In this document: positions 27,767-34,280 of the stretch, one piece after another
How the letters are laid out: each line of letters opens with the position of its first letter
Position numbering within the stretch: position 1 is the first letter of the stretch
DNA from: Pleurocapsales cyanobacterium LEGE 10410
GTDB taxonomy: Bacteria; Cyanobacteriota; Cyanobacteriia; Cyanobacteriales; Xenococcaceae
DNA length: 36,378 bases
Reading direction: 5' to 3'
NCBI GenBank assembly: GCA_015207195.1
Contig: JADEXJ010000055.1
Coordinates: 1 to 36,378, forward strand
Made by a program: the position numbers and the translations under genes
The notes under the pieces: generated by a model
Database searches by the model: none
Told to the model about the DNA's origin: nothing
Seen by the model: the letters and a program-made list of their open reading frames with translations, nothing else

Positions 27767-28877
27767 ATGGAAGTATCAGAACTAAAACGCACGATCGAAA
27801 CCACATCCTTACGCCTGGGTAAAACTCAGGAATATCTTTGACCCCCCTGCCATCACTGCTAAGATACAAGATCTCGAACAAAGAGCAGCACAGCCAGAAT
27901 TTTGGGATAATCGAGACACAGCTCAAAAAGTACTGCAAGAATTAAACGATCTCAAATCTAATTTAGAGCAGTATCAGCACTGGCAAAGCATTTTAGAAGA
28001 TACTAAGGCGATCGCTGAATTATTGGAACTAGAATCGGATGCAGCTTTAGCAACGGAAGCTCAAACCAATCTCGAACAATTAGCCAAAGATTTAGAACTT
28101 TGGGAGTTACAACAGCTTCTATCTGGCACTTACGACACCAAAGGAGCCGTCTTGACCATTAATGCTGGTGCGGGTGGTACAGATGCTCAAGATTGGGCGG
28201 AAATGCTGCTGCGAATGTACACTCGTTGGGCAGAAAAAGAAGGCTATAAGGTTCATTTGACTGAATCTTCTCCAGGTGATGAAGCAGGAATTAAATCCGC
28301 TACCTTAGAAATTGACGGACGTTATGCTTATGGCTATTTGAAAGCCGAAAAAGGAACGCACCGTTTAGTTAGAATATCTCCCTTTAACGCTAATGGAAAA
28401 CGGCAAACTAGTTTTGCGGGAGTAGAAATCATGCCTAACCTAGAGGATGAAGAGCTAAATCTTGAAATTCCTGATAAAGATCTGGAAATCAAAACCTCTC
28501 GTTCTGGGGGTGCTGGAGGGCAAAATGTCAACAAGGTAGAAACCGCGGTTCAAATCGTTCATTTACCAACTAAAATAGCCGTGCGCTGTACTGAAGAACG
28601 TTCTCAATTACAAAACAAGGAACGTGCTTTGGCGTTATTGAAGGCTAAGTTACTAATTATTGCTGAAGAACAACGAGCGAAAGAAATTGCTGAAATTCGT
28701 GGCGATATGGTAGAAGCAGCCTGGGGAAATCAGATCCGTAACTATGTTTTTCATCCCTATCAAATGGTTAAAGACTTACGCACAGAAACTGAAACAACCG
28801 ATGTCAATGATGTTATGGATGGTAATCTCAACCCTTTTATTGAGGCTTATCTGCGACAAGAAAATCAATTAGTTTAG
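27767..28877 (+). CDS. prfB: Peptide chain release factor 2, with programmed +1 frameshift
   Basis: The gene starts at ATG 27767 ([11 protein letters not shown]...), reads 24 codons to an in-frame TGA at 27839-27841 and then continues in the +1 frame from 27840 to 28877. Shifted, it gives about 369 residues, the normal RF2 length. RF2 features are all present: SPF (stop-codon recognition, in [10 protein letters not shown]), GGQ in [12 protein letters not shown] (peptidyl-tRNA hydrolysis) and the C-terminal [11 protein letters not shown]. It releases peptides at UGA and UAA. Without the frameshift only a 24-residue product would form, the known autoregulatory circuit for RF2. A start at 28023 would lose the N-terminal domain and is rejected. 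Confidence 0.97.
27828..27842 (+). promoter_or_regulatory. RF2 programmed +1 frameshift site
   Basis: The site reads CAG GAA TAT CTT TGA C: a Shine-Dalgarno-like AGGA (27828-27831), then CTT (27836-27838), TGA (27839-27841) and C. This is the canonical RF2 shift arrangement, in which tRNA-Leu slips from CUU to UUU while TGA waits for RF2. Low RF2 favours shifting and thus more RF2. Confidence 0.95.
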
Positions 28878-29558: not shown

Positions 29559-30437
29559 ATGAAACCTTTGGATTTAGTCAATCTCCGTGGGTTGATGGAA
29601 ATTACCAGCGGTAATGCGAGAACTATAGTCGGGTTAATTGATGGACCTGTTGCCAAGAACCATCCCGACCTGACAGGAGAAAAAATTCGGATTATTCCAG
29701 GAAAGCTTAACAGTCAGTGTACTCAAAGTAATGATATCGCTTGCACCCATGGAACATTTGTAGCTGGTATCTTGTGCGGAAAGAAGAATTCTATAGCACC
29801 AGCAATCTGCCCCAACTGTAATCTGTTAGTGCGTCCTATTTTTGCTGAGAATACAGCAGGGAACGGACAAATCCCAAATGCAACTCCCGAAGAACTCGCA
29901 GCAGCAATTATTCAATGCCTAGAAGCAGGTGCGAAGTTGCTGAACTTGAGCATTGCCCTAGCACAACTATCATCTGGTGGTCAATATGAATTGAAAGCAG
30001 CTCTGGATTATGCAGTCAAGCGAGGGGCGATTGTAGTTGCAGCAGCAGGTAATCACGGAACTTTGGGTAGTTCTGTCATCACTCGTCATCCTGGGGTTAT
30101 TCCAGTAGTTGCTTGCGATCTTCAAGGTAAACCAATAAGTCAGTCGAACCTGGGAAGATCGATTGGTAGTCGAGGTCTGAGCGCGCCAGGGGACAAGATT
30201 ACCAGTCTTGGAACTAACGACAAACCTTTGGTTTTGAGTGGAACAAGTGTTGCAGCTCCGTTTGTGACTGGAACAATCGCCCTATTGCAATCGGAATTTC
30301 CTGCTGCGACGATAACTGACATCAGGTACGCAGTTACTCAAGCAGATGGAGCACGGCGGACTAGTGTAGTTCCGCCTTTGTTGGATGCCTGGACAGCCTA
30401 CCAAGTTCTCGCAAAGGTTCATTCTTCAAGGAGGTGA
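29559..30437 (+). CDS. PatA-like subtilisin-family (S8) protease of a peptide locus
   Basis: 292 residues with no signal peptide or propeptide, so cytoplasmic. Subtilisin catalytic residues: D28 in VGLIDGPVAKNHPDL, H64 in CTHGTFVAGIL, oxyanion-hole N165 in AAGNHG and S230 in SGTSVAAPF. Cysteines near 54-87 (CTQSNDIAC, CPNC) are distinctive. The sequence closely resembles the N-terminal protease of the PatA/PatG family known from cyanobactin maturation, where such proteases cut leader peptides from precursors. In the homologues I know from memory this protease is usually fused to a PatG-type domain; here the two are separate genes. It ends VHSSRR, encoded AGG-AGG then TGA, with an AAGGAGGT at the stop (see the finding on possible frameshifting). 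The downstream peptide genes are its likely substrates. Confidence 0.9.
   Translation: MKPLDLVNLRGLMEITSGNARTIVGLIDGPVAKNHPDLTGEKIRIIPGKLNSQCTQSNDIACTHGTFVAGILCGKKNSIAPAICPNCNLLVRPIFAENTAGNGQIPNATPEELAAAIIQCLEAGAKLLNLSIALAQLSSGGQYELKAALDYAVKRGAIVVAAAGNHGTLGSSVITRHPGVIPVVACDLQGKPISQSNLGRSIGSRGLSAPGDKITSLGTNDKPLVLSGTSVAAPFVTGTIALLQSEFPAATITDIRYAVTQADGARRTSVVPPLLDAWTAYQVLAKVHSSRR
30428..30437 (+). promoter_or_regulatory. AAGGAGGTGA at the S8 stop: tandem AGG-AGG-TGA
   Basis: The last codons of the S8 gene are AGG AGG TGA (30429-30437), which also form a perfect anti-Shine-Dalgarno match AAGGAGGT. The +1 frame is open from here into the PatG-type gene. No start codon lies at the right distance downstream, so it is not an ordinary ribosome site. 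AGG-AGG tandems are known to promote +1 frameshifting in E. coli; whether that applies in this host is unknown. Confidence 0.4.
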
Positions 30438-30534
30438 GGTATCTACAGTTCAAAAGGTTTGGGAGATCCACCTACTGAGGTCTGTGAACCAGCAGCCTCT
30501 GGTATCGTTAACCCTTAAAAAAAGGAGAATAATA

Positions 30535-31473
30535 ATGGAAACTGAAATTGAACAATCAGTCAATCCAGTAGTTGAGATGGATGACTCAATAGACGCACCA
30601 TCCTTCCAGAGTAATACTGGAATGGCAGTATTACCCCAATCTGGCAATGGTTGTAGCTGTCAAGATCCTGCCAATATTCAAGATAGTTCAGCAGTTGCTA
30701 GCGTTCCTTCGTTTGTTTACGCCATTGGTAAGGTAGAATGTCGCTTTCCCAACATCTCGGTAGAAAAGGAATTTGCCCAAGCAACTGGTCGGGCAGAAAC
30801 TGTTGGACTTACAGACCGACAGGCACTTTATGAAATTTTGTCCCAACGAGAAAATCGCTATCTGGCTCGTCAATCATGTTGGGTGCTAAGTATTGAAGGT
30901 CTAGAAACATACATCTTACTTCCACGAGAATCAGGAGACTATGAGTTATTAGTAGAAGCTCTGCGTCCTACTCCGCATCTTACAGACACCAATATTGTGA
31001 TTGGCTTTCGTGGACCAATCGCCCCAGCAGAAATGTGTAATGGGTTGATGGTTCCGATTATCGTAATCGATCAGCTTTATTCCTTTGATATTGATTCGCT
31101 CCTCGACTCTATTCCGCGACCAGAAGAAATCCCTGAGGAGCAATTTAGACCAGCAGCTGAGGAACTGTTGATGAGGATTATGCAGGTGGCTGACAACGCT
31201 GGCGCAACCGACGAACACCGAGCCTTGAACTACTTGGTGGTTCGCTATCCTGCTATCTACGCCAAGGCTGCTGAGGAATATGCCCGCGACTTTGCCCTGA
31301 CTGGAATAGAAGTTATTCCTTCCACTCTCAGCAATACTAGCAAGATTGTTGAGGTAATCTTCGCCTACACCAATCGCAACACTGACTTCACTGAGAAGTT
31401 CTTTGTTCGTGTTGATGTAACAGGTGAGTGGCCGTTCTTAGTAACCAAACTATCACCTTACTTCAATCGTTGA
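30535..31473 (+). CDS. PatG-type domain protein (cyanobactin-maturation family)
   Basis: 312 residues from ATG 30535, with AAAGGAG seven bases upstream. A longer frame from 30385 overlaps the protease gene and is not needed. The polar N-terminus (1-58) contains a GCSCQ motif (39-43). Residues 60-312 match the conserved non-protease domain in PatA/PatG-family proteins: VYAIGKVECRFP, VEKEFAQATGRAE, GLTDRQALYEILSQRENRYL, RGPIAPAEMCNGLMVP, NAGATDEHRALNYL and KFFVRVDV...FLVTKLSPYF. This domain has no established catalytic function that I can name; it may bind precursors. It is 97 bases after the protease stop and probably co-transcribed with it and with the first peptide gene 29 bases later. Confidence 0.88.
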   Translation: METEIEQSVNPVVEMDDSIDAPSFQSNTGMAVLPQSGNGCSCQDPANIQDSSAVASVPSFVYAIGKVECRFPNISVEKEFAQATGRAETVGLTDRQALYEILSQRENRYLARQSCWVLSIEGLETYILLPRESGDYELLVEALRPTPHLTDTNIVIGFRGPIAPAEMCNGLMVPIIVIDQLYSFDIDSLLDSIPRPEEIPEEQFRPAAEELLMRIMQVADNAGATDEHRALNYLVVRYPAIYAKAAEEYARDFALTGIEVIPSTLSNTSKIVEVIFAYTNRNTDFTEKFFVRVDVTGEWPFLVTKLSPYFNR

Positions 31474-31487
31474 AATTATAAAATTTT

Positions 31488-31495
31488 AAGGAGGT
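31488..31495 (+). promoter_or_regulatory. Strong Shine-Dalgarno of peptide gene 1
   Basis: AAGGAGGT is a full match to the anti-SD, 7 bases before ATG 31503. Peptide gene 2 has AAGGAGGC (32265-32272) and peptide gene 3 only AAGGA (32989-32993). Perfect SDs are not the rule in cyanobacteria, so these suggest high expression of the peptides, decreasing down the cluster. Confidence 0.75.
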
Positions 31496-31502
31496 AACAC
31501 AA

Positions 31503-32078
31503 ATGAGTTTACCTAGATTTACGGCAGAGCGATCGCTTTATGTCTCGCAGGTGTCTTATGTAGCTAAAAGTTCCAACGTAGCAGTAAATACTGACATAGT
31601 GACCACAGCTCAAGCTTGTCCTGGAAATGTTCGGGGTTTCGGGGCTTCCTTTGGGGCTCCTTCTACTACTTCAGTAATGAACCCCAATTTGCTCACACAG
31701 GCTGAGATATTAGCAACATTAAACGCTGATTCACGTTGTCCTCCTGGGTGCAGATTTATCCCTATCCCCATAAACCCAAGAACTATGAGGCAAATTCTTG
31801 ATGTAGGTTCTCCACCTATCGAGGTTATTAGGTATGTTGCTGATTTTGCTTGTATATCGCCTTTACCGCCACCGCCACTACCACCGCCAGTATTCACACC
31901 TACTCCCGTAAGTGAACCCTTAATCACAGGCGAAACCGTCGATACCTTGGCTAAAGTCGTGGGCGTGGTTGCATTAGCTGGCTTGGGCGCAGCACTTATA
32001 GCATCTGCTCCAGCTTCAGCCCCTGCGGCGGCGGCTATCGGGCTAGTCGGATTAATCGGGTTAGGTATTGGTGATTGA
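31503..32078 (+). CDS. Peptide 1: LPxFTA-leader protein, Pro-rich with hydrophobic tail
   Basis: 191 residues. The leader MSLPRFTAERSLYVS (1-15) is shared with peptides 2 and 3. The rest is unrelated to them: 4 Cys (39, 79, 83, 117), a Pro-rich block at 119-139 (LPPPPLPPPVFTPTPV) and then a Gly/Ala hydrophobic stretch (148-190, with GLGAAL and GLVGLIGLGIGD) able to span a membrane. No Sec signal or double-Gly export motif is evident at the leader boundary. The gene follows the PatG-type gene by 29 bases with a perfect SD, so it is probably in the same operon. I infer a precursor whose leader is recognised by the S8/PatG proteins. An alternative is a structural or surface protein with a shared N-terminal tag. 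I know no characterised homologue of the core. Confidence 0.75.
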   Translation: MSLPRFTAERSLYVSQVSYVAKSSNVAVNTDIVTTAQACPGNVRGFGASFGAPSTTSVMNPNLLTQAEILATLNADSRCPPGCRFIPIPINPRTMRQILDVGSPPIEVIRYVADFACISPLPPPPLPPPVFTPTPVSEPLITGETVDTLAKVVGVVALAGLGAALIASAPASAPAAAAIGLVGLIGLGIGD

Positions 32079-32336
32079 GTACGATTTCCAATTTTTTAGG
32101 TGTGTTAGCAACAGTTTAATGGACAAAATCAACTAGTAAAGAGGCTATACAGCGGCAAAAGAGCAAATTTTCTCTATATTGACTAAACCAATCAATAACC
32201 TGCTCTATCTTATTTTGGTGAATAAACTGTTGCTCTACTTCGATCATTGAAATTGAACAATTTTAAGGAGGCAAGACAAATGAGTTTACCTGGATTTACC
32301 GCCGATACCTCACTCTATAAGTCTAAGCAGCAATAT
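32073..32336 (+). repeat. Duplicated upstream+leader cassette, copy A
   Basis: From GATTGAGTACG through the codons for QQY of peptide 2, this 264-base block is repeated at 32798-33058 with high but imperfect identity. It includes the stop of peptide 1, a 128-base segment with 12-base terminal inverted repeats, a copy of the PatG-type gene's last codons, the SD and the leader-coding start. Similarity ends at the leader-core junction. Confidence 0.85.
32107..32234. repeat. 128-bp segment with perfect 12-bp inverted ends, copy A
   Basis: AGCAACAGTTTA (32107-32118) and TAAACTGTTGCT (32223-32234) are perfect inverted repeats bounding the segment, with an inner hairpin AGAG...CTCT near 32160-32175. 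No clear target-site duplication is visible at the flanks. It could be a small non-autonomous mobile element or a structured regulatory RNA upstream of peptide 2. Confidence 0.65.
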
Positions 32337-32636
32337 CGACTGAACGCGAAGAATACTTTGCTGAGGGCTCATGCAATACAACAACAGTCAAATTTTACTA
32401 CACCTTCTTCACTCTTATCGGCTTCTCAACAATTCAAGTCAGATTTTGTTTCAGATTCCAACGTAATTCTAAGTACATCTTTTATCCCAAGTTTCTTGTT
32501 CGACTGTCTGTTGTGTAGTTTCACTGGTCGAGCTAAGAACTGTAGAACGTGCTTGTCATGCTCAAGTCTTTTACAAAGCTGCCTTAGTTTGTCGAATATC
32601 GGGGCCTGTGTTAATTTTGTGGTTCGTTGCTACTGA
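32280..32636 (+). CDS. Peptide 2: LPGFTA-leader protein with 8 cysteines
   Basis: 118 residues from ATG 32280, chosen because AAGGAGGC lies 7 bases upstream and the leader aligns with the others. A frame from 32247 adds 11 unrelated residues. Leader MSLPGFTADTSLYKSKQQY (1-19) is nearly identical to peptide 3 in protein and DNA. The middle is Gln/Ser-rich. The C-terminal 45 residues contain 8 Cys (76, 79, 88, 91, 94, 101, 110, 117) in hydrophobic/Ser context, ending VVRCY. This is a leader-variable-core architecture. Disulfides, thioether or metal binding are all possible; none is shown. The core is unlike peptide 1. Confidence 0.72.
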   Translation: MSLPGFTADTSLYKSKQQYRLNAKNTLLRAHAIQQQSNFTTPSSLLSASQQFKSDFVSDSNVILSTSFIPSFLFDCLLCSFTGRAKNCRTCLSCSSLLQSCLSLSNIGACVNFVVRCY

Positions 32637-32694
32637 AGTACATTCAACTAATACTCCTCTGAAGTACATTCAACTAATACTCCTCTCAAAGAGG
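32634..32694. repeat. 26-bp tandem repeat plus small hairpin
   Basis: Two exact adjacent copies of a 26-base unit beginning TGAAGTACATTCAAC (32634-32659 and 32660-32685), starting at the TGA stop codon of peptide 2. They are followed by CCTCT-caa-AGAGG (32682-32694), a 5-bp hairpin. It probably arose by local slippage and might act as a weak terminator or mRNA stabiliser. Confidence 0.8.
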
Positions 32695-33001
32695 TGGGCG
32701 TAACTATCATTATTTAAGAGCGCGGGTGCTGCATTCATATATATCTACTGTCTTAGCTACAAGTACTGCAATTGCTATGACTAGGTTAGTCACTAATGAT
32801 CGAGTACGATCTCCAATTTTTTGGGTGTGTTAGCAACAGTTTAATATACAAAACCAATTAATAATGGTCTGTACAGCAGTAAGAGAGTAAATTCTCTCTA
32901 TATTGACTGAACCAAACAATAACTTATTTCATTTATTTTGGTAACTAAACTGTTGCTCTACTTTAATCGTTTAAAAATAAACAATTTCAAGGAAAAGACA
33001 A
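32637..33001 (+). other. 365-base gap between peptides 2 and 3 with a possible lost core remnant
   Basis: It holds the 26-bp tandem repeat, then about 100 bases (32700-32800) where one frame reads TVLATSTAIAMTRLVTND without a start. This lies in the place that corresponds to the hydrophobic end of peptide 1 in the cassette alignment. Copy B of the cassette then starts. I read this as the decayed tail of another peptide gene; support is weak. Confidence 0.35.
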
Positions 33002-33058
33002 ATGAGTTTACCTGGATTTACTGCCGATACCTCACTCTATAAGTCGAGGCAGCAGTAC
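32798..33058 (+). repeat. Duplicated upstream+leader cassette, copy B
   Basis: It matches copy A (32073-32336) from GATCGAGTACG to the QQY codons of peptide 3, and similarity again stops at the core. Differences include a weakened SD (AAGGAAAAG), a changed stop-fossil (TTA instead of TGA) and a stronger inner hairpin AGAGAG-taaatt-CTCTCT (32882-32899). Confidence 0.85.
32832..32957. repeat. 126-bp segment with perfect 12-bp inverted ends, copy B
   Basis: AGCAACAGTTTA (32832-32843) and TAAACTGTTGCT (32946-32957) match copy A exactly at both ends, while the interior has diverged. Conservation of both ends over interior change suggests that the ends matter for structure or mobility. Confidence 0.65.
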
Positions 33059-33712
33059 CATATTAGAATTGCATCTAGTACTTTTCACGCTGATGTGGTG
33101 CCTGCCCAAATAGGCACTGGTCTATCCTGTGTGGTTGCGTGTGTTGGGTTGGCATTAGCAAACGCGAGCGCTAATATTAGAACTGACTTTACAGCCCTCC
33201 TATCACTTTGTACGGCGGAATGCGGTCTTGCAACTGCGCCGTCTTGGACAGTAGTTGTTGAAGAAGTTGCAAAGCGTGCGGCCTTAGCCAGCCAATGGAA
33301 GATTGGCTTAATTCCAGGTCTCGGCTTAGCAGCACTCATCGGCATTCCTCTTGGTGCGGCAATTGGACTGGGAATCGAGCGTCTTCTTACGCCAGCACCT
33401 GCGCCTGTTGGTTCTTTAGCACCAGCCTGCAGAACCACAATCGCGCCAGCAAAAAGGACAATAACAGGATGTTATTTCGGATGTACAAATTCGCTCGTAA
33501 GCACTGAGAACCAGGCTAAAGCTTTCTGTGCATCACTTCCTGTTGGCTACTGCACGGGTACATGCCCTAACGGTCTTCCCTGTATTCCCACTGCTAGGTT
33601 CTTCTCTCGCAGTAGTGGCTTTTGTCTAGCGACGAGTTCGGTGTTTGGTGTCCAAGTCGGAACACTAGGGTGTGAAACAACCGTGGATTACACTTGTGTC
33701 TGCGGCTGCTAA
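33002..33712 (+). CDS. Peptide 3: LPGFTA-leader protein with 16 cysteines
   Basis: 236 residues. Leader MSLPGFTADTSLYKSRQQY (1-19) is as in peptide 2. Then a Cys/Ala-rich stretch (43-74: SCVVAC, SLCTAEC), a Gly-zipper-like hydrophobic segment (102-125, GLIPGLGLAALIGIPLGAA), a Pro/Ala linker and a Cys-rich C-terminus (143-236) with 12 Cys ending TCVCGC, 16 in total. No Sec signal at the N-terminus. The SD is weak (AAGGA). Like peptides 1 and 2 it appears to be a leader plus unrelated core. The hydrophobic segment and Cys-rich tail suggest a membrane-active or disulfide-stabilised product. Function not known. Last gene of the locus. Confidence 0.75.
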   Translation: MSLPGFTADTSLYKSRQQYHIRIASSTFHADVVPAQIGTGLSCVVACVGLALANASANIRTDFTALLSLCTAECGLATAPSWTVVVEEVAKRAALASQWKIGLIPGLGLAALIGIPLGAAIGLGIERLLTPAPAPVGSLAPACRTTIAPAKRTITGCYFGCTNSLVSTENQAKAFCASLPVGYCTGTCPNGLPCIPTARFFSRSSGFCLATSSVFGVQVGTLGCETTVDYTCVCGC

Positions 33713-33968: not shown

Positions 33969-34280
33969 TTACACTTTCTTTTCTCCCTGTTTATTCAGTT
34001 TTCTATACTCGATAATTGCTTGGCGAAAACCCAAAACCACCAAAATATTAGAAAGAGTTAGAAACAATTCCGCACTACCATGCAGCCAGTCTACATTAGC
34101 CAAGGCTTCGCCATAATGAACTTGGGCATAAATCCCCGCAGGAATAGTTACTGCTACAAAAACTAATAGAACATAGAAACCAATCAAAGCCAAACGTGGT
34201 GTTTTTCCCGAACGAGTCATAAACCAGAGGAAACCGAGATAAGGAAACAAAGAAACGGCAAATAAATTTTCTTTACTCAT
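33969..34280 (-). CDS. DUF3593 membrane protein
   Basis: 103 residues with about three hydrophobic helices (LFAVSLFPYLGFLWFM, LIGFYVLLVFVAVTIPAG, LFLTLSNILVVLGF). It matches the cyanobacterial/plastid DUF3593 family by length and layout. Its ATG overlaps the end of the DUF2499 gene by 8 bases, so the two are translationally coupled and probably form one complex. A thylakoid or plasma-membrane location is likely. Function unproven. Confidence 0.82.
   Translation of the reverse strand: MSKENLFAVSLFPYLGFLWFMTRSGKTPRLALIGFYVLLVFVAVTIPAGIYAQVHYGEALANVDWLHGSAELFLTLSNILVVLGFRQAIIEYRKLNKQGEKKV

What the first reader, a model, noticed from the sequence alone, without database searches (positions are those of the whole stretch)
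29559..33712. Uncharacterised RiPP-like locus: PatA-like protease, PatG-type protein and three LPxFTA-leader precursors
The sequence shows a cytoplasmic subtilisin with an intact triad, a protein matching the PatG-type non-protease domain, and three downstream genes that share only their first 13-19 residues. In cyanobactin systems PatA and PatG cut precursors around a conserved leader. Here the usual heterocyclase/YcaO partner, PatE-type precursor and prenyltransferase are absent. The precursors are large (118-236 residues) with Cys-rich or hydrophobic cores. The inference is a protease-only peptide maturation system, with FTAxxSLY as the recognition motif. It sits as an accessory block between prfB and the DUF3593/gshB group.
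Basis: partly seen in the sequence, partly recalled or inferred. Interest (0 to 1): 0.9.

Follow-up and report, generated by a model that had tools for sequence, protein, structure and literature searches.

The report
Leader-tagged disulfide-rich protein maturation system
A pair of genes related to cyanobactin-peptide processing enzymes travels, across many bacterial phyla and a few archaea, with a large and apparently undescribed family of small proteins that share only a short start tag and nearly always contain an even number of cysteines after it, which points to an unrecognised way of making disulfide-linked peptides and proteins.

Summary
In detail: a PatA-type subtilisin (29559-30437), a stand-alone PatG_D/PatG_C protein (30535-31473) and three ORFs sharing only a leader (31503, 32280, 33002). 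A scan gave 93 relatives of the PatG-like protein, 80 kept; in 84 loci (13 phyla, archaea included) an S8 gene is present in 81 and a leader ORF passes threshold in 69. Leader and PatG-like gene coincide: the same 2 of 386 cyanobacterial genomes; 17 and 16 (a subset) of 120 in the Nitrosospira family. New: a second motif, [VIL]xP[QA], about 30 residues in (117 of 178 precursors; shuffles 2.3), and an even cysteine count after residue 34 (171 of 178), a share that peaks exactly at that junction. The products are thus probably disulfide-paired and freed of the leader. A small CxxC gene is found in 68 of 84 loci, but not here. Best reading: leader-guided proteolytic maturation of disulfide-rich proteins, probably also serving dispersed precursor genes. 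Two of the three window precursors lack the strict second motif. It is not a cyanobactin system. Cleavage, oxidation and export are inferred; no bench test exists.

The parts
29559..30437 (+). PatA-type subtilisin (S8), 292 aa, triad D28/H64/S230
   Evidence: Pfam; triad conserved; best PDB sequence hit 4h6w (cyanobactin protease PagA) 1.4e-40; top fold hit 3zxy (PatA protease) 3.2e-23, closely followed by ordinary subtilisins
30535..31473 (+). stand-alone PatG-like protein (PatG_D + PatG_C), 312 aa
   Evidence: Pfam; PDB 4uvq (PatG-DUF) by sequence 2.3e-7 and by fold 2.4e-16
30628..30660 (+). VLPQ...CSC motif in the low-confidence (probably disordered) N-terminal tail of the PatG-like protein, residues 32-42, resembling the second motif of the precursors
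31503..32078 (+). leader-bearing precursor 1, 191 aa, 4 Cys
31503..31559 (+). leader tag of precursor 1 (MSLPRFTAERSLY...)
32280..32636 (+). leader-bearing precursor 2, 118 aa, 8 Cys
32280..32336 (+). leader tag of precursor 2 (MSLPGFTADTSLY...)
33002..33712 (+). leader-bearing precursor 3, 236 aa, 16 Cys
33002..33058 (+). leader tag of precursor 3 (MSLPGFTADTSLY...)
33095..33109 (+). second motif VVPAQ of precursor 3 (residues 32-36), the proposed cut site; the equivalent stretches of precursors 1 and 2 are degenerate
32079..32279 (+). intergenic repeat copy upstream of precursor 2, with 30-nt inverted arms
32801..33001 (+). intergenic repeat copy upstream of precursor 3, with 30-nt inverted arms

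Best explanation
The locus is a compact maturation system. Each precursor carries an N-terminal tag (about 20 residues, [LMI]PGFTAExSLYxxxxxY), a short spacer and, in most, a V/I-x-P-Q/A motif near residue 30, followed by an unrelated cysteine-paired domain. The PatA-type S8 protease, together with the PatG-like protein (and in most hosts a small CxxC protein), recognises the tag and cuts near that motif, releasing a disulfide-bonded peptide or protein. Shown by sequence: gene order, co-occurrence, tag, second motif, intact triad, even-cysteine rule with its peak at the junction, purifying selection on cores. Inferred: that S8 does the cutting, that the second motif is the cut site, that the PatG-like protein is the recognition or presentation partner (its own tail carries a similar motif plus two Cys, so it may itself be cut), that the machinery serves precursor genes elsewhere in the genome, and that the products are oxidised, exported and act outside the cell.
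For: An S8 match in 81 of 84 loci, 78 just upstream (at most 962 bp) and 3 downstream of the PatG-like ORF. Leader ORFs over threshold in 69 of 84 loci, 190 in all: 169 on the same strand within 3 kb downstream of the PatG-like gene, 4 on the opposite strand. The 3 plasmid hits of a leader query (E 0.6-3) all have an S8 gene and a PatG-like gene just upstream. Genome-level co-occurrence: 386 cyanobacteria, leader in 2, close PatG-like gene in the same 2; 120 genomes of the Nitrosospira family, leader in 17, PatG-like in 16 of those, Fisher p 5e-19. Second motif at positions 28-36 in 117 of 178 precursors against a mean of 2.3 and a maximum of 8 in 200 shuffles. Even Cys number after residue 34 in 171 of 178, in 129 of 136 core clusters; control ORFs 361 of 653. 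The even share depends on the cut: 154 of 178 for the whole precursor, 171 at cuts 30-34, 164 at 36, 136 at 40, 106 at 50, so it peaks where the second motif lies, as expected if the leader is removed. In 29 orphan precursors not used before, 26 even (many are orthologues of each other). Core pN/pS 0.24 over 53 non-independent orthologous pairs. Recognisable cores include phospholipase A2, CBM_14 and STIG1-like domains.
Against: 61 of 178 precursors lack the strict second motif, among them two of the three in the window. One genome (G461) has a leader gene and no PatG-like gene. 30 of 64 leader genes in the Nitrosospira family are not near the pair. NCBIfam scores the S8 protein best against T7SS mycosin (126.6 bits, below that model's cut-off), ahead of PatA/PatG (104.2). 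The PatG DUF of patellamide synthesis did not bind its precursor by NMR (PMC4259220, results section read). No exporter or oxidoreductase was recognised as conserved beside the pair, and no leader has a hydrophobic segment (0 of 178 over KD 2.0), so how disulfides form is unexplained. 7 of 178 cores are odd; one pentapeptide-repeat core (L088) has a single Cys.
Confidence: 0.69

Rival explanations
1. The tag is chiefly an export or targeting signal for an unrecognised secretion route, and the S8/PatG-like pair is the receptor and signal peptidase of that route.
For: Disulfide-paired cores need an oxidising place; no Sec-like segment in the leaders; precursor genes dispersed around the genome behave like clients of a general route.
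Against: No membrane protein or energy-coupling component was recognised as conserved in the loci (an ABC ATPase group of 10 loci has no member within 3 kb); the window's S8 and PatG-like proteins have no 19-residue stretch over KD 1.61.
Confidence: 0.18
2. A divergent cyanobactin-type RiPP pathway in which cysteines are turned into azoles or the core is macrocyclised, with missing enzymes supplied in trans.
For: Protease and DUF are homologous to PatA and PatG; the genome holds a YcaO protein on another contig.
Against: Even-cysteine rule; the last residues of the precursors are diverse; no YcaO among the five proteins and no conserved extra neighbour recognised (YcaO itself was not searched in the relatives); precursors up to 472 aa; no leader ORF in 14 regions around fused PatG proteins.
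Confidence: 0.05
3. The cores are metal-binding (metallothionein- or rubredoxin-like) rather than disulfide proteins.
For: Many CxC and CxxC spacings; one of 144 members matches a putative metal-binding family weakly (NF040898, 0.0073).
Against: Even counts from 2 to 46 in unrelated frameworks; matches to phospholipase A2, CBM_14 and STIG1-like families, which are disulfide-bonded (recalled).
Confidence: 0.05
4. The protease degrades or regulates the tagged proteins (a degron or toxin-control role) instead of maturing them.
For: Distant similarity of the protease to subtilases of defence and phage collections (PDLC03014 1.3e-19; phrog_3677 3e-28).
Against: Fixed spacing of a discrete second motif at the leader-core junction and the parity peak there; purifying selection on cores.
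Confidence: 0.03

Closest known systems
Cyanobactin maturation enzymes (PatA protease, PatG DUF; TIGR03895, PF18047, PF18065)
   Same: S8 protease closest by sequence to the PatA-type proteases among solved structures; partner has the PatG-DUF fold; a leader is discarded from a ribosomal precursor (inferred here).
   Different: Protease and DUF are separate genes; far below the TIGR03895 cut-off (104.2 and 33.2 bits against 421.05); one S8 protein only, no YcaO or prenyltransferase among the five proteins; other leader; products large and apparently disulfide-paired; 13 phyla.
Class II (double-glycine leader) bacteriocins
   Same: Unmodified or disulfide-bonded peptides released from a short conserved leader (recalled, not tested here).
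   Different: Different leader; S8/PatG pair instead of a C39 peptidase-transporter (recalled); no transporter recognised as conserved; client domains more diverse.
Conotoxin precursor superfamilies (PMC4278219, passages read)
   Same: A conserved N-terminal region attached to many cysteine frameworks.
   Different: Signal peptide plus propeptide in an animal; no homology claimed; analogy of design only.
T7SS mycosin (TIGR03921)
   Same: Highest NCBIfam bit score for the S8 protein (126.6).
   Different: Below its cut-off of 278.75; no ESX-type protein among the five; ESX genes were not searched further.

Membership tests
Cyanobactin biosynthetic system | PatA-type S8 protease | tested here: met
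   (by fold alone ordinary subtilisins score nearly as well)
Cyanobactin biosynthetic system | PatG-DUF domain | tested here: met
Cyanobactin biosynthetic system | S8-DUF fusion protein over the TIGR03895 cut-off | tested here: not met
   104.2 and 33.2 bits against 421.05
Cyanobactin biosynthetic system | PatG-type macrocyclase domain | tested here: not met
   one S8 protein in the block; PatG macrocyclase 4aks 8.7e-17 ranks far behind PatA-type 4h6w 1.4e-40; the macrocyclase lid itself was not examined
Cyanobactin biosynthetic system | YcaO heterocyclase in the cluster | tested here: not met
   the only YcaO match of the genome is on another contig
Cyanobactin biosynthetic system | PatE-type precursor | tested here: inconclusive
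   no meaningful Pfam or NCBIfam match for the three precursors (best TatB_1 0.19); PatE itself was not compared
Leader-guided peptide maturation (RiPP in the broad sense) | shared leader, divergent core | tested here: met
Leader-guided peptide maturation (RiPP in the broad sense) | post-translational modification enzyme other than a protease | tested here: not met
   no conserved neighbour recognised besides S8, PatG-like, small CxxC protein and precursors, by all-against-all blastp of ORFs in the loci (listing capped at groups of 4 or more loci)
Leader-guided peptide maturation (RiPP in the broad sense) | leader cleaved off in the mature product | not testable with these tools
   needs mass spectrometry; the parity peak at residues 30-34 is indirect support
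Disulfide-rich secreted peptides | even number of cysteines in the mature part | tested here: met
   171 of 178 even after residue 34, 164 after 36, 154 over the whole precursor; leader 0.4% Cys, core 11.7%
Disulfide-rich secreted peptides | Sec signal or dedicated exporter | tested here: not met
   (hydropathy only, no signal-peptide predictor)

The most novel reading that the evidence does not exclude
A previously unrecognised system, spread horizontally over bacteria and archaea, that makes hypervariable disulfide-rich proteins, in design like animal venom or defensin precursors, with its own tag, protease, PatG-fold partner and CxxC helper, the last two perhaps acting as a thiol relay for oxidative folding, and with an export route not yet known. 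It would also give the PatG DUF, whose role was left open after its structure was solved, a testable function: handling the tagged precursor.
Probability: 0.35. Interest if true: 0.95.

Novelty: new variant of a known kind. Interest (0 to 1): 0.85.

Why it matters
It links one enzyme pair to more than two hundred small ORFs found here (190 in the loci, about 30 elsewhere), in the three plasmid records checked without a listed gene at the leader match, names their tag and likely cut site, and predicts that they are disulfide proteins. It offers a context for studying the PatG DUF outside patellamide synthesis, a possible tag-and-cut system for disulfide-rich proteins, and an open question about how such proteins leave the cell without a signal peptide.

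Tried and rejected
Fused PatG loci as carriers of the leader: 14 regions of 13-20 kb (L022-L035) hold no match to three leader patterns. A repeat element spread in the genome as the source of the intergenic repeats: found only at this locus. A conserved exporter, oxidoreductase or regulator: none recognised (one search was dominated by shadow ORFs of S8 and PatG and was redone). The small CxxC protein as an essential part: absent from the window genome, from G218 and from four genomes chosen because their loci lack it (G416, G417, G419, G431); the fifth, G411, has it at the locus. A structured intergenic RNA: z -1.17 upstream of precursor 2, -5.51 upstream of precursor 3, not consistent, not pursued. 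Phage origin: no match of the PatG-like protein in 50,697 phage records at E 1e-3. The core-to-core identity was uninformative (free end gaps) and is not used. Text searches for the motif strings and PatG-related families gave nothing on this system (open-licence PMC papers only). Of papers I saw the search listings, passages of PMC10885120, PMC3482391 and PMC4278219, and the outline and sections 4 and 15 of PMC4259220.

Choices that affect counts: 190 leader hits became 178 for the motif and cysteine counts (12 with an ORF part under 55 aa or the profile start before the ORF); a few of the 190 are probably spurious short or off-pattern hits. The cysteine cut was first set at 36 (164 of 178 even), then at 34 (171), then scanned. 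L021 was left out as the same contig as L053. The weaker leader-like ORFs of 12 further loci were not added. Eleven further home regions largely repeat loci already used and are not counted as a test.
Full report
WHAT IS THERE. Between prfB (28023-28877) and the DUF3593 gene (33969-34280, minus strand) lie five genes on the plus strand: a 292-residue subtilisin (Pfam S8, 1.5e-25), a 312-residue protein covered by PatG_D and PatG_C (2.4e-33 and 4.9e-33), and three ORFs of 191, 118 and 236 residues. The three share their first residues (MSLPxFTAxxSLY). The first 57 nt of genes 2 and 3 match at 52 of 57 positions and the 200 bp upstream at 165 of 197, while the repeat finder reports nothing between their cores. 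The upstream repeat and the leader are found nowhere else in the 6.6-Mb genome. This suggests that units of upstream region plus leader were copied and the core exchanged; that is inference.

AN INSERTED BLOCK. In 7 of 9 same-genus relatives examined (of 12 held), prfB and DUF3593 lie within 1 kb of each other with no S8 or PatG-like match in the stretch; in the other two no prfB match lies beside DUF3593. Of 27 genomes of the family, six others have a PatG_D match, all weaker (46.8-63.2 bits against 116.1) and in longer open frames.

RELATIVES. A scan of the genome collection with an alignment of five PatG-like proteins gave 93 relatives, of which 80 were kept. With the window and three plasmid loci this makes 84 loci (L021 left out as the same contig as L053). 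The 80 fall in 13 phyla by record title, including Methanoperedens and Methanosaeta; in the tree of the PatG-like protein the phylum labels need 22 changes (least possible 12, shuffled 48), which fits some horizontal spread but is not proof; the bootstrap had not settled and many records are bins. In the plasmid records the S8 gene is annotated as peptidase, the PatG-like gene as hypothetical protein, and no gene is listed at the leader match (that gene table is incomplete).

THE LINK BETWEEN TAG AND ENZYMES. An S8 match lies in 81 of 84 loci, 78 upstream and 3 downstream of the PatG-like ORF; of the three misses L117 begins inside the PatG-like gene at a contig end. A leader profile seeded with 92 strict matches gives 190 ORFs at 10 bits or more in 69 of 84 loci; 169 are on the same strand within 3 kb downstream of the PatG-like gene, 8 at 3-6 kb, 1 beyond, 8 upstream, 4 on the other strand. 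In 12 of the 15 remaining loci a weaker leader-like ORF is visible; these are not in the counts. Because the profile was seeded in the same loci, the independent tests matter more. In 386 cyanobacterial genomes the leader occurs in 2 and the close PatG-like gene in the same 2 (the nine further PatG matches are weak, E 1.5e-9 or worse). In 120 genomes of the family of the Nitrosospira multiformis genome of L040 (taken to be Nitrosomonadaceae; the tool names no groups) the leader occurs in 17 and the PatG-like gene in 16 of those 17 and in no other (Fisher p 5e-19). Against a strict neighbour rule, 30 of 64 leader genes there are not within 5 kb of the pair, and the 30 regions fetched around them hold no S8, PatG-like or small CxxC gene. 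G461 has a leader gene and no PatG-like gene. In 14 regions around fused PatG proteins there is no leader, so the tag seems to belong to this stand-alone subfamily.

ANATOMY OF THE PRECURSORS. The leader is bipartite. The tag is [LMI]PGFTAExSLY followed some six residues on by Y; then a spacer; then [VIL]xP[QA]. In 178 precursors (12 of the 190 dropped) this motif starts at 28-36 in 117; 200 shuffles give 2.3 on average and 8 at most; from position 52 on it is found in at most one sequence per nine-residue bin. Of the window's three only precursor 3 has it (V32-V-P-A-Q36); precursors 1 and 2 have degenerate stretches (IVTTAQ, AIQQQ). Cysteine is 0.4% of the leader and 11.7% of the core. After residue 34, 171 of 178 precursors have an even number of cysteines (p 5e-42); 5, 7, 11, 13 and 15 do not occur; grouped by core similarity 129 of 136 are even; ORFs of 150-700 aa from the same loci with two or more Cys are even in 361 of 653. 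The even share is 154 over the whole precursor, 166 at a cut of 20, 171 at 30 to 34, 164 at 36, 136 at 40 and 106 at 50. It thus peaks where the second motif lies: the few leader cysteines break the parity and their removal restores it, which is indirect evidence that the leader is cut off there. In orphan genes not used before, 26 of 29 are even, the three odd ones being one family (31 profile hits in 29 ORFs; many are orthologues). The window cores have 4, 8 and 16. This favours cysteines paired with each other over azoles or lanthionines, which impose no such rule. Cores of orthologous precursors are under purifying selection (pN/pS 0.24, leader 0.47; 53 non-independent pairs). Of 144 precursors scanned few have a known domain: phospholipase A2, pentapeptide repeats, STIG1-like, a myxobacterial Cys-rich family, and CBM_14 in one scanned separately. 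No Pfam or NCBIfam model was found to cover the leader. Precursors 1 and 3 of the window hold a hydrophobic stretch in the core (KD 2.22 and 2.14 over 19 residues).

THE ENZYMES. Among solved structures the S8 protein is closest by sequence to PatA-type proteases: PagA 4h6w 1.4e-40, PatA 4h6v 6.6e-35, then ordinary subtilisins from 1.8e-25, the PatG macrocyclase at 8.7e-17. By fold the top hit is PatA 3zxy, with ordinary subtilisins close behind (model pLDDT 89.3). NCBIfam scores it higher for T7SS mycosin (126.6 bits) than for PatA/PatG (104.2), both below cut-off. Cys 54, 62, 84 and 87 are conserved in 72-78 rows of 83. The PatG-like model (pLDDT 85.8, low confidence over about residues 1-55) has one match at E below 0.001 among solved structures, the PatG DUF 4uvq. 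In 56 of 68 PatG-like proteins with a clear core start the tail has a CxC or CxxC, and in 46 an xxP[QSA] motif precedes it (16 of 84 had no clear start), as in the window (VLPQSGNGCSC). Similar stretches sit in the linker of several fused PatG proteins. The tail thus looks like a copy of the precursor junction; it may be a substrate or a competitor. A third gene, about 70 residues (RLPGFxxEEIGLGDVIKRxTxxxGIKPCGGCxxRAAxLNRW, CxxC invariant in the 16 aligned), is found in 68 of 84 loci, in 63 of them between S8 and PatG; it has no Pfam or NCBIfam match and is missing from the window genome and from G218, the Pseudanabaena genome.

MECHANISM. Most likely the tag recruits the precursor to the S8/PatG-like pair, S8 cuts near V-x-P-Q, and the core becomes a disulfide-linked product. 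Shown: association, anatomy, intact triad, even-cysteine rule and its peak. Inferred: cutting, site, the role of the PatG-like protein, oxidation, export. The published PatG DUF did not bind PatE by NMR (PMC4259220, sections 4 and 15 read), a point against a simple leader-binding role. No exporter was recognised as conserved and the leaders have no hydrophobic segment, so the route out of the cytoplasm is the main gap.

COMPARISON. It is not a cyanobactin system by the features tested: no fusion protein over cut-off, no second, macrocyclase-type protease, no YcaO in the block (the genome has one on another contig). It works like a leader-guided maturation system of the RiPP or class II bacteriocin kind (the latter recalled), with a new tag, another partner and apparently disulfide products. 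PatA and PatG recognition sequences in cyanobactins are G(L/V)E(A/P)S and AYDG (PMC10885120, passages read), unlike V-x-P-Q.

NOVELTY AND LIMITS. Searches of open-licence PMC text for the motif strings and PatG-related families found no description; most subscription papers and preprints were not searchable. I rate it a new variant of a known kind because the logic (tag, protease, core) is known and the enzymes are homologous to known ones, while the tag, the third gene, the product class and the distribution are, as far as I could search, undescribed.

Noticed in passing
window 32633-32684: A perfect 26-bp tandem duplication (CTGAAGTACATTCAACTAATACTCCT twice) at the stop codon of precursor 2.
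   Followed up: no
window 32107-32234 and 32832-32957: Inverted arms of 30 nt (AGCAACAGTTTAAT...) flank the spacer upstream of precursors 2 and 3; only the second folds better than shuffles (z -5.51 against -1.17).
   Followed up: partly
window 31947-32003 and 33320-33376: Cores of precursors 1 and 3 each hold a strongly hydrophobic 19-residue stretch (KD 2.22 at residue 149, 2.14 at residue 107), possible membrane segments.
   Followed up: no
window 28023-28877: The prfB ORF starts at a TTG and gives 284 aa, matching the PCRF profile only from position 60; this may reflect the programmed frameshift known in prfB (recalled).
   Followed up: no
L206 346-2628: Same genome, another contig: a 760-aa protein with a YcaO match, followed by an ORF that looks amidohydrolase-like by eye; perhaps a separate azole-peptide cluster.
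   Followed up: partly
L021 6092-6508; G490 C1:739205-739700: Partial or broken extra copies of the PatG-like gene beside or away from the main locus.
   Followed up: no
L088 12368-13642: A leader fused to a 425-aa pentapeptide-repeat protein with one cysteine, an exception to the disulfide rule.
   Followed up: no
L084 11915-13377, minus strand: A leader ORF and a second small CxxC gene on the opposite strand near the main set, like part of a second unit.
   Followed up: no
L099 2149-7761: An Acetobacteraceae locus with eleven leader hits in a row, the largest array seen.
   Followed up: no
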